In this document: positions 16,253 to 21,981 of the stretch, one piece after another
Numbering within the stretch: position 1 is the stretch's first letter
Layout of the letters: every line of letters begins with the position of its first letter
DNA from: Planctomycetota bacterium
GTDB lineage: Bacteria > Planctomycetota > J058 > JAJDCQ01
Assembly (NCBI GenBank): GCA_029260755.1
Contig: JAJDCQ010000135.1
Coordinates: 1 to 64,000 of the forward strand
Direction: 5' to 3'
DNA length: 64,000 bases
The notes under the pieces: model-generated
What the model was told of the DNA's origin: nothing
What the model saw: only the letters and a program-made list of their open reading frames with translations
Database searches by the model: none
Translations under genes and position numbers: made by a program

Positions 16253-17734
16253 TCAGTCCCCGTCGTCGCCGTCCGCGTCGTCGTCGTCCCAGTCGTCATC
16301 GTCATCGTCGCCCATGATGTCGCCGAACCCCGCGCGCTTCATCAGGTCATCCATCGCCCCGCCCGTCGATGGAACATCGTCGTCGTCCTCGTCCGCCCCC
16401 TCCAACGAGGGCTCCGGCGGCGACGGGAACGGTTGCCAGAACGGCTTGCCCTCGAGCAGATTCACCGGGCCCATCGAGACGGTCGGAACGTAGGTGACGA
16501 TCACGACGGCGACGAGGAGCAACCCGGCGAACGGGACGACGCTCCTGATCACGTCGCCGAGCGGCTTCTCGAAGATCTGGCTCGAGACGAAGAGGTTGAG
16601 CCCGAGCGGCGGCGTGAGGTAGCCGAGCTCGAGGTTGACGATGAAGATGATCCCGAGGTGAATCGGGTCGATGCCCAGCCCCGCCGCGATCGGAACGAGG
16701 AGCGGGACCAGGATCATGATCGCGCTCATGATGTCCATGAAGCAGCCGACGAGCAGGAGCAGCACGTTCAGGACGAGGAGGAAGGCGACCGGACCGAGGT
16801 CCAGGCTCGCCACCCACGCCGCGGCCGCCTGCGGCACCTCGAGCTCGCCGAGGAGGGCGTTCAGCCCGAACGCCATCACGAAGATCACGAGCAGGCTGCC
16901 CATGAGGGCCGCCGCCTCGGCGCAGACGCTCGGGAGGTCGTCGAGCTGGAGCTGCCGGTGGACGAAGACCTCGATCACCAGGGCGTAGACGACGCTGACG
17001 GCCGCCGCCTCGGTCGCGGTGAAGATGCCCGAGTAGATCCCGCCTAGGATCACGAACGGCAGCAGGATCGCCCAGACGCCCTCGCCGAGCGCCTCCTTGA
17101 TGACGGCCGCAGACGGGCGGGTGAGGCTCTCGCCGCGGAGCTTCCCGGTGACGACGCAGTAGCCGCCGAGCAGCAGCCCGATGAGGATCCCCGGCCCGAC
17201 GCCGGCGAGGAAGAAGCTCTCGATCTGGATCCCGCCGGCGAAGATCGCGTAGACGATCATCGGGATGCTCGGCGGGATCAGGATCCCGAGCGTCCCCGCG
17301 CTCGTCACCAGACCGGTGGAGAACCGGTCCGAGTACCCCTGCTTCATCAGCGCGGGATACATCACCGACCCGATCGTGATCACCGTGACCGGGCTGCTGC
17401 CGCTGATCGCCGCGAAGAACATGCACGCGCCGACGGTGGCGACGCCGAGGCCGCCGGGCACGAAGCCGACGAACGCCTTCGCGACGTCGACGAGCCGGGA
17501 CGAGATCGCCCCGCGGCTCATGATCGTCCCCGAGAGGACGAAGAACGGGATCGCGAGGAGCGGCGGCTTGTCGGTCAGCCGCCGGATCTCCTCCATGAGC
17601 GGCGCCTTGAACGGGTCGCCCGACTCGCCGCCGAGGACGTAGCCCGCGACGGTCGCGATCCCGATGACGACGAACAGCGGCACCCGGAGGAGCAGCAGGA
17701 CGATGAGGATCGCCACGATGAGGAGCCCGCTCAC
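16253..17734 (-). CDS. dctM: TRAP transporter large permease DctM with acidic C-terminal tail
   Basis: A 493-residue membrane protein with the DctM fold: VVIGIATVAGYVLG, FFVLSGTIMSRG, GPGILIGLLLGGYCV and FMDIMSAIMILVPLLVP motifs and about 12 helices. It forms the Na+-driven translocation channel with DctQ. GTG 17734 overlaps the dctQ stop by four bases. Oddly, about 55 extra residues after the last helix end in a run of aspartates with few interruptions. Typical DctM stops soon after the last helix, so this tail is a lineage-specific addition. Confidence 0.93.
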   Translation of the reverse strand: MSGLLIVAILIVLLLLRVPLFVVIGIATVAGYVLGGESGDPFKAPLMEEIRRLTDKPPLLAIPFFVLSGTIMSRGAISSRLVDVAKAFVGFVPGGLGVATVGACMFFAAISGSSPVTVITIGSVMYPALMKQGYSDRFSTGLVTSAGTLGILIPPSIPMIVYAIFAGGIQIESFFLAGVGPGILIGLLLGGYCVVTGKLRGESLTRPSAAVIKEALGEGVWAILLPFVILGGIYSGIFTATEAAAVSVVYALVIEVFVHRQLQLDDLPSVCAEAAALMGSLLVIFVMAFGLNALLGELEVPQAAAAWVASLDLGPVAFLLVLNVLLLLVGCFMDIMSAIMILVPLLVPIAAGLGIDPIHLGIIFIVNLELGYLTPPLGLNLFVSSQIFEKPLGDVIRSVVPFAGLLLVAVVIVTYVPTVSMGPVNLLEGKPFWQPFPSPPEPSLEGADEDDDDVPSTGGAMDDLMKRAGFGDIMGDDDDDDWDDDDADGDDGD

Positions 17735-18756
17735 AGGAGCTCCTTCTTCTCGGGCGGCCGCGGGTTGACCAGGTGGTCGACCGTCGCCGCGCCGAACCGC
17801 AGCGCCATGAGCGAGAAGGCGGTCGCCGCGGCGGCCGTGATCGTCCACGCCGGCAGGCGTGTCGACGGACGGACCTCGCCGCCGGGGAGGTCGACGGTGA
17901 CGATCTGGTTCACGGCCAGGATCACGATGTAGCCGCAGAACGCGGCCGTGACGCCCAGCCCGGCGGCGGAGGTCCAGGGAACCGCGGGCCTCGGGACGGC
18001 CTTCGCGAGCGCCTCGACGAAGATGTGCTTGCCCTCCCGCGTCGCGAGGCTGCCCCCGAGGAAGGCGACCCAGGCGAGGAGGATGAGCGACAGCTCCTGA
18101 CTCCAGATGTACTTCGACGGCAGCTTCGGGCAGAGGATCAGCCCGAGGGCGCCGAGGGCGCCGGCGACCGCGACGCCCGACCACCGGCGATGGCGGGCCG
18201 CCACGAACGCGTAGCCGGCGACCGACGCGAGGAGAAGGGTGAGGCAGACCCAGCGGCTGGGGACGTCGACGACGAACCGGGCGAAGGCGTAGCCCGCCAC
18301 CAGCAGCCCGACGCCCGCGCCCGCGCCGAGCCCCCACGACCACGGCCGCTCACGCTTCCGCTGGATCGACGCCGAGAGGATGATGCCCGCCGCGAACGTC
18401 ACCGCCGCGAGGATCGCCGGACCGACCCAGTCGTTCAGGAACGCGGCAGCGCCGGAGCCGAGCTCGAAGAAGAGGCCGAGGAGGCTGGCGAGCTTCGTGC
18501 CGATCTTGCTCTCCGGCGAGGAGAACGACCGATCGACGATGTCGAGGGAGACGGTCGCCGTCATCGCGAGGAGCGCCGCGGTGATGAACGCCTTCTCGAC
18601 CGCGTGGACGCCGTCGTCGACGATCGAGGCGAGCCGCGGCAGCGGCGCGCGCGCCAGGCGCTCCGCTCGCTCACGCCACGGAAGCGCCTCGTCGGCGCTC
18701 GCCGCGGCGGCCAGCGCGGTGGACCGCTCGGCGGCGGATCGCTCGACGAATCCCAT
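17731..18756 (-). CDS. dctQ: TRAP transporter small permease DctQ, oversized
   Basis: A 341-residue protein, about twice the usual 160-180. The DctQ signature is split: N-terminal helix VEKAFITAALLAMTATVSLD (about 52) and the later WSQELSLILLAWVAFLGG then REGKHIFVEAL (about 220-255). Between them about 130 residues with four extra hydrophobic helices are inserted. A similar enlargement is known in some TatT-associated TRAP systems. The start ATG 18756 is 36 bases after dctP. Confidence 0.85.
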   Translation of the reverse strand: MGFVERSAAERSTALAAAASADEALPWRERAERLARAPLPRLASIVDDGVHAVEKAFITAALLAMTATVSLDIVDRSFSSPESKIGTKLASLLGLFFELGSGAAAFLNDWVGPAILAAVTFAAGIILSASIQRKRERPWSWGLGAGAGVGLLVAGYAFARFVVDVPSRWVCLTLLLASVAGYAFVAARHRRWSGVAVAGALGALGLILCPKLPSKYIWSQELSLILLAWVAFLGGSLATREGKHIFVEALAKAVPRPAVPWTSAAGLGVTAAFCGYIVILAVNQIVTVDLPGGEVRPSTRLPAWTITAAAATAFSLMALRFGAATVDHLVNPRPPEKKELL

Positions 18757-18792
18757 CAGGCGCTCCCGTGAAGGACGGCGCGGACGCCCGTC

Positions 18793-19854
18793 CTACTCGC
18801 CGGCCTTCTTCGCCTCGAGGATCGCATCGAGCATCGCCTTCCCGCCTTCGCTCGCGGTCTCGCGTCGAATGTCCCAGACCGGACGCGTCGCCTTCCGGAA
18901 CGCGGCGCGCTCCTCGTCGGTCGAGTGATGGACCTTGATCCCCTTCTTCTCGAACTCCTCGAGGAGGATCGGCTCCATCGCCCGGACGCCCTTCCGCCCA
19001 CGGCTCTGGAGCTTCGCCGCCGGGGCGAAGAGGATGTCCTGGAGGTCCTTCGGGAGCCTGTCGAACCACGCCTTGTTGATCACCAGGAGCGCCGGCTGAT
19101 AGATGTGCCGGCTGACCGTGTAGTGATCGATCGCCTGGTGCCAGCTCGCCGCGAACGTGAAGAGCGGCGTGTTGTCGAAGCCCTCGACGACGCCGGTCTG
19201 GAGCGCGCCGAGCACCTCGCCGACCGAGATCGTGACCGGGCTCGCCCCGAGCGCCCGGTAGGTCTCGACGTGGACCGGGCTCTCCTGGCTCCGCATCTTC
19301 TTCGCCTTGAGGTCGTCCGGCGTCTTCACGAATCCGCCCTTGGTCCCGAAGCTGCGGTAGCCGTTCTCGGAGTACATCAGCAGCTTGAAGCCCTTCTCCT
19401 CGAGCATCTTCTCGAGGTGCGGGCGCGCGACGCCGTCGAGGATCCCGTCGGCCTGCTCGGCCGAGTCGAACAGATACGGCAGCTCGAGGATGTCGACGTC
19501 GGCCACCATCGCCGACATGGCGGCCGTGCTGACGCCGCAGAGCTGGAGGGTCTCGCCCTTGAAGACCTGTCGGACGAGGCTCTGCTCGTCGCCCTTGATC
19601 CCGCCGAGGTAGACGCGGACCTTGACCCGGCCATTGCTCCGCTTCTGGACCTCCTTCTTGTAGCGGTTGAGGAGGTCCGCCCAGGGCGTCCGGTCGGGGG
19701 CGACCGTGCCGATCTTGAGGGTGAACTCGGCGTCGTCGGCCCGCGCGCTCTCGACCGCGCGGTCGCCAGCCCCCGGGAGGACGACGAACGCGAGCGCGGC
19801 GAAGGACGCGACGAGCCCGATCGCCAGGCGCCTGGTCGTGGTGGTCGCACTCAT
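18793..19854 (-). CDS. dctP: TRAP transporter solute-binding protein DctP
   Basis: A 353-residue periplasmic protein. The signal peptide ends near AESARA-DD (about 39). DctP family features follow: LKIGTVAPDRTPWADLLNRY, the mid-domain LKAKKMRSQESPVH containing the arginine that usually salt-bridges the ligand carboxylate, and GALQTGVVEGFDNTP. Substrates of the family are organic acids; which one cannot be told. ATG 19854 shares one base with the TAA of tatT (TAATG), so translation is coupled. Confidence 0.92.
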   Translation of the reverse strand: MSATTTTRRLAIGLVASFAALAFVVLPGAGDRAVESARADDAEFTLKIGTVAPDRTPWADLLNRYKKEVQKRSNGRVKVRVYLGGIKGDEQSLVRQVFKGETLQLCGVSTAAMSAMVADVDILELPYLFDSAEQADGILDGVARPHLEKMLEEKGFKLLMYSENGYRSFGTKGGFVKTPDDLKAKKMRSQESPVHVETYRALGASPVTISVGEVLGALQTGVVEGFDNTPLFTFAASWHQAIDHYTVSRHIYQPALLVINKAWFDRLPKDLQDILFAPAAKLQSRGRKGVRAMEPILLEEFEKKGIKVHHSTDEERAAFRKATRPVWDIRRETASEGGKAMLDAILEAKKAGE

Positions 19855-20759
19855 TAGAAGTACTCCTCCTTCTCCTCCAGCAGCTTCTTCGCCGTCCGCT
19901 TGGCGACCCTGTTCTCGGGGATCACGTCGGGCAGGACGTCGTCGGGCGTCTCGAGCACCTCGTTGAGGAGGCGATCGAAGAGCTCCTCGTCCTGGTTCTT
20001 GACGGCGTAGTTCGAGGCGAACAGCACCTTCGTCTCGAGGTAGTTCGGCTGGATCTCGATCGCCTTCTCGAAGTGCTCCTTGCTGGCCGGCATGTCGCCG
20101 CCCGGGAAGGGGATCTTCGTCCGGTAGACGCCGAAGTAGCGATGCGGCGCGCCGTGGAGGAACGTCTCGTCGAGCTGGCGGCAGTGATCCATGATCGCGG
20201 CGGCCCGGTCCTTGTTGGCGAGGATCGTGGTGAAGCCATCGAGCAGCGCCCACTTGCCGAGGTTCGTCGCATACCAGTAGATCGCGGCGATCCCATCGGC
20301 CTCGATGAGGGTGACGGCCTCCTCCCACTCGCCGCCCGCCTTGATCTTCTCGGCGAACGCGGGGCTGTGGAGGTAGATCGCCCGCTCGGCCGCCTTCACC
20401 CCTTCGTCGTAGGCGGCGAGCATCCCGTCCTCATCGTCATCGAAGCGAAGATGGGCGTGGGCGAGGAAGTAGTAGGCGTAGGCGAGCTTCAGCTGGATGT
20501 CCGCCCGGTTCGAGGCGAGCCCGGCCGCCTCCTTCCACCTCGCGATCGCGTCATCGACCGCCTGGCGCTCCCCGCGGTCCGCCCAGAGGGCATCGGCCTC
20601 GGCGAAGAGCTCTTCGGCGCGGGTCGCCTCGGCGTCCTCGACCGGCGCCTCGGAGGTCGGCGCCTGCTCATCGTCGAGGAGGCTGCCGCGACTGCTGCAC
20701 CCGAGGGTGAGGCCGATCAGCATCGCCGCGGGGAAGAGGACGAGGGTCGTCGATTTCAT
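19854..20759 (-). CDS. tatT: TRAP-associated TPR lipoprotein TatT
   Basis: A 301-residue lipoprotein (signal peptide, lipobox LTLGC, cysteine at 21). The body is all-helical with TPR-like repeats, for example RADIQLKLAYAYYFLAHAHL, DEGVKAAERAIYLHSP and HFEKAIEIQPNYLETKVLFA. TatT of Treponema pallidum (Tp0956) forms a trimer that binds the TRAP substrate-binding protein. The gene order tatT-dctP-permeases here matches that TPAT arrangement. It is first in the operon, divergent from the peroxiredoxin gene with 186 bases between them. Confidence 0.88.
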   Translation of the reverse strand: MKSTTLVLFPAAMLIGLTLGCSSRGSLLDDEQAPTSEAPVEDAEATRAEELFAEADALWADRGERQAVDDAIARWKEAAGLASNRADIQLKLAYAYYFLAHAHLRFDDDEDGMLAAYDEGVKAAERAIYLHSPAFAEKIKAGGEWEEAVTLIEADGIAAIYWYATNLGKWALLDGFTTILANKDRAAAIMDHCRQLDETFLHGAPHRYFGVYRTKIPFPGGDMPASKEHFEKAIEIQPNYLETKVLFASNYAVKNQDEELFDRLLNEVLETPDDVLPDVIPENRVAKRTAKKLLEEKEEYF

Positions 20760-20945
20760 GGTCGCCTCGCTGGGACGGGGTCGCCTCGATCGGGATTCGC
20801 CCGATTCGGAGACGGAACGCCCTTTCGCGCGAAGATCTTAACGCGCCGTCAGGCCCCGTCAACGGCGCCCGGGAAGCGGCAAGCGCCTTGTCCGTTCGAG
20901 CCGTGGCTGGCAGGATGCCGCCTTCGCTCGGAAGGAGTCGACCCC
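20760..20945. promoter_or_regulatory. Divergent promoter region (TRAP operon / peroxiredoxin)
   Basis: The only space for promoters of both transcripts. A slightly A/T-richer stretch (CGCGAAGATCTTAACGCGCC near 20825-20845) is visible, but no reliable -35/-10 pair. GGAAGGAG at 20930-20937 is the ribosome site of the peroxiredoxin. Confidence 0.4.
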
Positions 20946-21488
20946 ATGAAACGACGCAGCCCGCGGACGATCGCCGCGGTCGCCGCCCTCGCCGCCATCT
21001 TCTCGGCCACCGGGCTCGCCTACGCGGCGGACCTGAAGGTCGGCGACGAGTGCCCGGATGTGACCCTCACCCTCGACGACGGCAGCGCCCTGAAGCTGCG
21101 CGAGGTCGGAAAGCCCATCGTCCTCTGGTTCTACCCGAAGGACGACACGCCCGGCTGAACGCGTGAGGCCTGCACCTACCGCGACCGGTCGGTCGACTTC
21201 GAAAAGGTGGGTGCCCTCACGATCGGCGTCAGCTTCGACGGCGCCGAGAGTCACAAGCGGTTCAAGAAGAAGCACGGCCTCGAGATGCCGCTCGCGATCG
21301 ACGACGGCAAGGTCGCCGAGGCGTTCGGCGTGGCCGTCCGCGCCTTCGGAAAGATGAAGGTGCACAGCCGCGACACGATCGTCATCGGCGCCGACGGCAA
21401 GATCCTCGCCGTCGGCCGCAGCGTGAACCCGGTGAAGAGCGTCGACGAGGTGCTCGCCGTCCTCGTGAAGGCGGCGAAGAAGAAGTGA
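20946..21488 (+). CDS. bcp: Exported Bcp-type peroxiredoxin, predicted selenoprotein (Sec at TGA 21156-21158)
   Basis: The frame from ATG 20946 (strong GGAAGGAG upstream) has a signal peptide cleaved after AYA (residue 27). It then shows the Bcp/AhpC-TSA core VGDECPDVTLTLDDGS and LWFYPKDDTPG, an in-frame TGA as codon 71, then TREACTYRD and a continuous peroxiredoxin C-terminal half to TGA 21486-21488 (180 residues). In Bcp the motif is PGCTxEAC, with the first Cys peroxidatic and the second resolving five residues later. Here the TGA replaces the peroxidatic Cys and Cys76 is in the resolving position. The frame, the exact site and a hairpin after the TGA (21173-21209) favour selenocysteine over a pseudogene or error. 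The enzyme would reduce peroxides in the periplasm with thiol donors. The selA, selB, selC and selD genes are not in the window. Confidence 0.85.
21173..21209 (+). promoter_or_regulatory. Candidate bacterial SECIS hairpin
   Basis: CGACC (21182-21186) pairs with GGTCG (21191-21195) around apical loop GGTC (21187-21190). A lower stem CACC (21173-21176) pairs with GGTG (21206-21209) across an internal loop. The apical loop starts 28 bases after the TGA and begins with GG, within the usual geometry of bacterial SECIS elements (guanosine at the start of a small apical loop, 16-37 bases from the UGA). Confidence 0.6.
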
Positions 21489-21981
21489 CCGAAGGGGCCG
21501 CCGGCGCCGGCTACCGCCGGCGCGGCTGGCTCGCGGCGACAGCCGCCGTCGCAGGCCTGATCGTCGTGGCCGTCGTCGTCGCGGCCGTCTGGTCGATCGG
21601 CGAGTCGCACCGCCGCGCCGAGGCCGAGTGGCTCTTCCACGCCCTCGCGACCGGATCGGCTTCGACTCCCCGTTCGACGCGGACGGAGAGGCCTACTCCG
21701 TGCCCTGGTTCGAAACGGTCGAGCCGACGTTCGTCAACGAAGGCTTCGGACACCGCACCTACGAGGTGCGCCTCGAGGCGCCGACCGGCAGCGGCGAGCT
21801 CACCGTCGAGGCGAGCTGGCGCGGCGGCGCGTGGAAGGTCGACCGGGCGATCCTCCTCTGGCGCGACAACGGTGGGAACGAGCAGGAGAGCGACGCCACC
21901 GAGGCGATCGAGAAGCTCTCGTACCACCGGAACCGGGTGTTCCTTCCGACGCTGACGGTGCTGACCGCGCGCGAAGGGTAG
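21485..21981 (+). CDS. Membrane-anchored unknown protein, frameshifted
   Basis: GTG 21485 overlaps the peroxiredoxin stop (GTGA). The first part encodes a single membrane anchor (WLAATAAVAGLIVVAVVVAAV) and a helix EAEWLFHALATG. Then the protein-like frame shifts. From about 21650 the frame that reads GFDSPFDADGEAYSVPWFE continues to TAG 21979-21981 with a beta-rich domain (TYEVRLEAPTGSGELTVEAS). Regaining one base in the CCCC run at 21668-21671 would join the halves into a protein of about 165 residues. This may be a sequencing or assembly indel, or a recent inactivation. No family was recognised. Confidence 0.6.

What the first reader, a model, noticed from the sequence alone, without database searches (positions are those of the whole stretch)
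20946..21488. Selenocysteine peroxiredoxin: in-frame TGA exactly at the peroxidatic position
Seen: one reading frame from ATG 20946 to TGA 21488 is interrupted only by TGA at 21156-21158. The flanks read FYPKDDTPG-TGA-TREACTYRD. Known: in Bcp-type peroxiredoxins this site is PGCTxEAC, peroxidatic Cys then resolving Cys five residues on. The TGA replaces the first and Cys76 keeps the second. Inference: a secreted (signal peptide, residues 1-27) selenoprotein that ordinary gene callers would split into two fragments. An exported Sec-peroxiredoxin implies a Sec-decoding host and periplasmic peroxide defence of high reactivity.
Basis: partly seen in the sequence, partly recalled or inferred. Interest (0 to 1): 0.92.

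Follow-up and report, generated by a model that had tools for sequence, protein, structure and literature searches.

The report
Exported selenocysteine peroxiredoxin (PrxQ/Bcp type)
A gene that ordinary software would cut in two at a stop codon most likely makes one whole peroxide-destroying enzyme with selenium at its active site, probably outside the cytoplasm; it is a sound new example of a kind of selenoprotein that was already known.

Summary
The frame 20946-21488 is open but for TGA at 21156-21158 (codon 71), exactly at the peroxidatic position of a PrxQ/Bcp-like peroxiredoxin; read through, it matches AhpC-TSA at 2.9e-29. The same assembly holds selA, selB, a tRNA-Sec (UCA), and selD and an FdhA-like gene that themselves have in-frame TGA. 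Of 106 homologous rows, 72 carry an in-frame TGA, and in 68 one lies at this column. As a set, Sec homologues have a SECIS-like hairpin after the TGA far more often (46-53 of 67) than Cys homologues (1-5 of 38). For this gene alone the SECIS evidence is modest: a hairpin (loop GGUC, 28 nt after UGA) fits at six of seven fold lengths, but 117 of 1000 synonymous recodings do as well; only at 63-69 nt is the fold unusually stable. The model is a Bcp fold. A signal peptide is likely by rule of thumb only. Sec-containing Bcp-type peroxiredoxins were listed by 2005 (PMC1088965), so this is a new, divergent, probably exported member of a known kind. Selenium incorporation, export and activity are inferred.

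The parts
20930..20937 (+). ribosome-binding site GGAAGGAG, 8 nt before the ATG
   Evidence: sequence
20946..21488 (+). selenoprotein gene: peroxiredoxin of PrxQ/Bcp type, 180 residues with Sec71 (Sec inferred)
20946..21026 (+). probable signal peptide, residues 1-27 (MKRRS..., hydrophobic core, AYA-A)
   Evidence: sequence; rule of thumb
21156..21158 (+). in-frame TGA, codon 71, at the peroxidatic position (PxxxTxxU)
21171..21173 (+). codon 76, TGC, putative resolving Cys five residues after Sec
21163..21220 (+). predicted SECIS-like hairpin: outer stem 21163-21168/21215-21220, middle stem 21172-21180/21206-21214, upper stem 21182-21186/21191-21195, apical loop GGUC 21187-21190
   Evidence: 65-nt fold; controls

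Best explanation
The gene encodes one full-length PrxQ/Bcp-like peroxiredoxin in which UGA at codon 71 is decoded as selenocysteine by SelB and tRNA-Sec, probably helped by the hairpin at 21163-21220 (inferred). The protein is probably exported through its N-terminal signal peptide (inferred). In the envelope Sec71 would attack a peroxide, become a selenenic acid, form a selenylsulfide with Cys76 and be reduced by a thioredoxin-like protein (inferred from recalled PrxQ chemistry). Shown here: the open frame, the place of the TGA, the host's Sec genes, the family, conserved P64, T68, position 71 and R142, and predicted RNA and protein folds. The confidence given is for Sec decoding at codon 71; export alone I put at about 0.85.
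For: Frame and TGA; Pfam 2.9e-29 over the whole, halves in register; tRNA-Sec 69.4 bits, cut-off 47, anticodon UCA; SelA TIGR00474 541 bits, cut-off 268, and SelB TIGR00475 369 bits, cut-off 242; SelD 343 bits, cut-off 125, with in-frame TGA; FdhA-like gene with TGA inside the molybdopterin domain match and a loop GGUCU 18 nt on; second PrxQ of this genome with TGA at the same column. TGA at the column in 68 of 72 TGA-bearing rows. SECIS-fitting hairpin in 46-53 of 67 Sec against 1-5 of 38 Cys rows over seven fold lengths; the query fits at six of seven. Fold energy as low in 3 (63 nt), 1 (65 nt) and 2 (69 nt) of 1000 synonymous recodings. P64, T68, position 71, R142 invariant in 42 sequences. 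Model pLDDT 96; top matches Bcp/PrxQ.
Against: No close relative: highest identity 47-48%, so conservation of this TGA in orthologues could not be tested. The loop at 21 nt of most relatives (22 of 40 same-phylum Sec rows at 45 nt) does not form; the query alone has its loop at 28 nt. At 50 nt, and in the 52-nt count, the hairpin is not the best fold; its pairing probability is 0.5 at 50, 0.22 at 55 and 0.85 from 60 nt. With all seven lengths, 117 of 1000 synonymous recodings fit as often, 585 fit at some length, and at 40-60 nt the energy is unremarkable (99-549 of 1000 as low). Shuffle z-scores of other stretches were -0.72, 0.25 and -1.72. The next gene seems frameshifted, so local sequence error or decay is possible. 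The assembly is fragmentary (87.7% complete, 276 contigs) and the Sec genes lie on other contigs.
Confidence: 0.91

Rival explanations
1. Sequencing or assembly error, or a fresh nonsense mutation, turned TGC into TGA: the gene is an ordinary Cys peroxiredoxin or a new pseudogene.
For: TGC to TGA is one base; the neighbouring gene at 21485 shows a frame switch near 21650; 60 of 128 homologous domains have Cys here; the SECIS evidence for this gene alone is modest.
Against: The change would have to hit one codon of 180 and make TGA, not TAA or TAG, in a genome that decodes Sec and has SelD, an FdhA-like gene and a second PrxQ with in-frame TGA; third-position GC is unbroken after the TGA; the 65-nt fold is matched by 1 of 1000 synonymous recodings.
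Confidence: 0.06
2. TGA is a true stop and a short 70-residue product is made, with or without a second product from an internal start.
For: Standard gene callers would read it so; an internal GTG at 21207 opens a 93-residue frame.
Against: Neither piece would hold the active site; family, host machinery and homologues point to read-through.
Confidence: 0.02
3. It is a Sec peroxiredoxin, but not exported: the N-terminus is a membrane anchor, or translation starts further down. (A variant of the best explanation, so its odds overlap with it.)
For: Only a rule of thumb was used; some relatives marked by it, such as L111 and L113, look anchored rather than cleaved.
Against: Strong ribosome-binding site before this ATG, positive n-region, hydrophobic core and AYA-A; the domain begins at about residue 32.
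Confidence: 0.14

Closest known systems
Sec-containing peroxiredoxin Prx, COG1225 (Bcp), motif TxxU (PMC1088965, PMC2398784, PMC9312934: passages read)
   Same: Bcp-type domain, TxxU with the Sec codon at the peroxidatic site, Sec-decoding host, SECIS-like hairpin
   Different: Divergent (47-48% to the nearest rows held), probable signal peptide, predicted loop at 28 nt where 22 of 40 same-phylum Sec rows have it at 21; the passages read name no exported form
PrxU (NCBIfam NF040737); Sec peroxiredoxin of Eubacterium acidaminophilum, whose 2001 paper I saw only as a reference; that the two are one family is recalled
   Same: Peroxiredoxin with Sec at the peroxidatic position (recalled)
   Different: 33 bits against that family's cut-off of 270
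Cys PrxQ/Bcp, solved as 5epf, 3drn, 5iiz, and the related 5enu
   Same: Fold (TM by query 0.84-0.89); sequence matches
   Different: Sec in place of the peroxidatic Cys; signal peptide
Second Sec-PrxQ of the same genome (C238, L015)
   Same: TGA at the same column, Cys five residues on
   Different: No signal peptide by the rule of thumb; loop CGUGAC at 21 nt

Membership tests
Sec-containing peroxiredoxin (COG1225/Bcp, TxxU) | AhpC-TSA/Bcp domain over its full length | tested here: met
   (102 bits, cut-off 26, read through TGA); fold; COG1225 itself was not searched
Sec-containing peroxiredoxin (COG1225/Bcp, TxxU) | PxxxTxxU with the Sec codon at the peroxidatic site, and the conserved Arg | tested here: met
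   P64, T68, codon 71 TGA, R142; columns invariant in 42 sequences
Sec-containing peroxiredoxin (COG1225/Bcp, TxxU) | bacterial SECIS hairpin: loop 3-9 nt, stem 4-16 bp, G in the first two loop positions, 16-37 nt after UGA, MFE -7.5 or lower | tested here: inconclusive
   rules from PMC13188914 Fig 2 legend; met at six of seven fold lengths, but 117 of 1000 synonymous recodings do as well
Sec-containing peroxiredoxin (COG1225/Bcp, TxxU) | host with selA, selB, selC, selD | tested here: met
Sec-containing peroxiredoxin (COG1225/Bcp, TxxU) | selenium in the purified protein | not testable with these tools
   needs 75Se labelling or mass spectrometry
PrxQ equivalogs of NCBIfam (NF053650, NF006960) | score above the curated cut-off | tested here: not met
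   90 of 260 and 75 of 140 bits: nearest models, but outside those narrow families
PrxU (NF040737) | score above the curated cut-off | tested here: not met
   33 of 270 bits
Exported protein | cleavable signal peptide | tested here: inconclusive
   fits a rule of thumb; no trained predictor at hand

The most novel reading that the evidence does not exclude
Selenium-based peroxide defence outside the cytoplasm has arisen several times in this phylum: Sec-PrxQ proteins with signal peptides or anchors fall in several places of the tree, and this one is a lone, divergent line whose SECIS loop has moved from about 21 to 28 nt after the UGA and reads GGUC, like the GGUCU loop of the FdhA-like gene of the same genome.
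Probability: 0.35. Interest if true: 0.45.

Novelty: new member of a known kind. Interest (0 to 1): 0.33.

Why it matters
It is a gene that routine annotation would split and lose. It adds a probably exported selenoenzyme in a little-studied, probably planctomycete lineage. Sec and Cys forms of this enzyme interchange often (17 changes at the fewest on one quick tree of 127 rows), and this genome has two Sec-PrxQ, one probably exported and one not, so the family is a good test bed for why selenium is kept or lost.

Tried and rejected
Rfam searches of the window and of the 801-base stretch around the gene gave nothing of use. A scan for the best single hairpin by energy separated poorly: 53 of 67 Sec and 24 of 38 Cys rows reached -8 kcal/mol; it was dropped for the rule that the hairpin be in the best fold of the stretch. 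The first such count (52 nt, bulges allowed) gave 53 of 67 against 7 of 38, and there the query itself failed; its printed output was cut, its totals were not. SelD's hairpin was missed by a filter and read (loop GUC at 17 nt in six of seven folds). One search also printed many TGAs of other frames of L145, which I did not use. Paper searches (listings only, some shortened) showed no paper on an exported Sec-PrxQ; that is a limited search of open papers. PMC12013277 was searched for five terms without a match. The two pieces of the downstream gene gave no family above a cut-off.

Full report
Observation. The window gives an ATG at 20946, one in-frame TGA at 21156-21158 and a stop ending at 21488. 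With TGA read as a residue the product has 180 residues, beginning MKRRSPRTIAAVAALAAIFSATGLAYA-ADLKVG, with residue 71 in FYPKDDTPGUTREACTYRD. The part before the TGA matches positions 1-40 of the Pfam AhpC-TSA profile (24.9 bits, cut-off 26), the part after it positions 42-122 (57.1 bits), and the whole reaches 2.9e-29. GC at third codon positions is 0.94 before and 0.95 after. GGAAGGAG lies 8 nt before the ATG.

Host. The window is contig 41 of an unnamed 12.26 Mb assembly of 276 contigs, 87.7% complete, 2.6% contamination. It holds a tRNA-Sec (69.4 bits, cut-off 47; ARAGORN: anticodon tca), SelA (541 bits, cut-off 268), SelB (736 residues, 369 bits, cut-off 242; Pfam SelB-wing_3 and beta-barrel over cut-off, SelB-wing_2 just under it and just over it) and SelD (343 bits, cut-off 125) with an in-frame TGA in SGGU. 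In the tRNA-Sec and SelD searches all 14 control genomes rang at the loose threshold, 5 and 2 of them over the cut-off, so only matches over the cut-off count here. A molybdopterin-domain protein (243 bits, cut-off 24) has a TGA within the match, in QCAATUHAPT; I call it FdhA-like from recalled motifs. I infer Planctomycetota, because two loci titled so (L080, L081) fall beside same-phylum rows in the tree.

Homologues. 99 of 148 genomes searched as relatives (own genome included) have a match at 1e-10, and 151 of 392 in a wider, overlapping draw of the phylum at 1e-20. I fetched the TGA-bearing matches that one search listed (its list is cut off) and only part of the Cys ones; of the TGA-bearing matches new only L138 was held, and its column is Cys. 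Counts of Sec against Cys are therefore not a survey. Of 106 rows at 1e-12 from the 123 loci then held, 72 have a TGA in the aligned part. In 68 of these, the query included, one stands at the peroxidatic column; 5 of the 68 (L048, L092, L094, L096, L098) have a second TGA elsewhere. In the other 4 (L028, L030, L084, L104) the column is Cys. Of the 68, 27 keep Cys five residues on; the rest have S, K, I, T and others. 41 of the 68 come from whole-genome searches and 27 from named contigs, of Eremiobacterota, Deltaproteobacteria, Gemmatimonadetes, Pyrinomonadaceae and others. On a quick tree of 127 rows with column 71 masked, Sec and Cys change 17 times at the fewest; 42 of 123 inner branches are weakly supported, so the number is rough. 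The query sits alone on a long branch (0.7) in a supported set of 48 rows, which holds all 18 rows marked for a signal peptide.

SECIS. The rules are from the legend of Fig 2 in PMC13188914 (passage read). A hairpin counted only if it was in the best fold of the stretch after the UGA. In one search loops of 3-14 nt and at least 4 contiguous pairs were asked for; the -7.5 kcal/mol rule was not applied. Over fold lengths of 40, 45, 50, 55, 60, 65 and 69 nt, 46-53 of 67 Sec rows (query included) and 1-5 of 38 Cys rows fit; the query fits at all but 50. Its loop is GGUC, 28 nt after the UGA, on five pairs CGACC/GGUCG. Of 40 same-phylum Sec rows folded at 45 nt, 22 have the loop at 21 nt, 5 have no fitting loop, and the query alone has it at 28. 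The FdhA-like gene has loop GGUCU at 18 nt and SelD GUC at 17 nt. Controls for the query are mixed. A 65-base stretch folds with z -2.99 against shuffles, three other stretches gave -0.72, 0.25 and -1.72. Against 1000 synonymous recodings with local codon use, the energy is matched by 3 at 63 nt, 1 at 65 and 2 at 69 nt, but by 99-549 at 40-60 nt. The rules are met at six or more of seven lengths by 117 of 1000 recodings and at some length by 585. So the family as a whole shows a SECIS signal; for this gene alone it is modest, and the case rests on the place of the TGA, the host and the homologues.

Protein. P64, T68, position 71 and R142 are invariant in 42 aligned homologues. AlphaFold2, with Cys for Sec and residues 28-180, gives mean pLDDT 96. 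Residues 69-80 form a helix that holds both position 71 and Cys76. The 16 best solved matches are Bcp or PrxQ structures and one chain pair named alkyl hydroperoxide reductase, 5enu (sequence matches). The NCBIfam PrxQ models are nearest but below cut-off, so it is PrxQ/Bcp-like rather than a member of those narrow families.

Export. A rule of thumb (positive n-region, 10-residue hydrophobic core before the domain) marks 14 of 68 Sec and 4 of 60 Cys domains, the query among the 14. Some of these look like anchors. It is not a trained predictor and depends on guessed starts.

Known and new. The 2005 Sargasso Sea survey lists 43 Sec peroxiredoxins as COG1225 with motif TXXU (PMC1088965, passages); the 2008 ocean survey lists 253 (PMC2398784, passages); a 2022 review gives COG1225 (Bcp), TxxU (PMC9312934, passages); a 2006 survey names Sec peroxiredoxins in several bacteria (PMC1794560, passages); a 2026 review lists the family too (PMC13188914, passages). 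Planctomycete selenoproteins are described, with no peroxiredoxin in the main text (PMC4807772, passages). The kind is therefore known. What may be new is the exported form and the moved loop; the listings showed no paper on it, in open papers only.

Noticed in passing
window 21485-21981 (+): A gene overlaps the stop of the peroxiredoxin (GTGA). It begins with a hydrophobic segment, and by third-position GC its reading frame seems to switch near 21650: decay, an assembly error or a frameshift. Neither piece matches a family above a cut-off.
   Followed up: partly
window 16253-20759 (-): Divergent upstream cluster of a TRAP transporter: T-component, DctP, DctQ and DctM.
   Followed up: no
L019/L146 (own genome, C156 near 82310): A distant AhpC-like peroxiredoxin with TGA at its peroxidatic site (FYPLDWTPTUSNEV); possible further selenoprotein of this genome.
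   Followed up: partly
L025 (G115, C14 41058-41963): Two Sec-PrxQ genes in tandem, the first marked for a signal peptide.
   Followed up: no
L090 (G073, C11 15890-16930): A Sec-PrxQ with probable signal peptide and a Cys-PrxQ follow each other in one frame when TGA is read through: neighbour genes or a double-domain protein.
   Followed up: no
L055-L082, 17 rows of the tree: A clade of 17 Sec-PrxQ rows, mostly titled Eremiobacterota, with Ser, Thr, Ala or Gln in place of the Cys five residues on: possible one-Sec enzymes.
   Followed up: no
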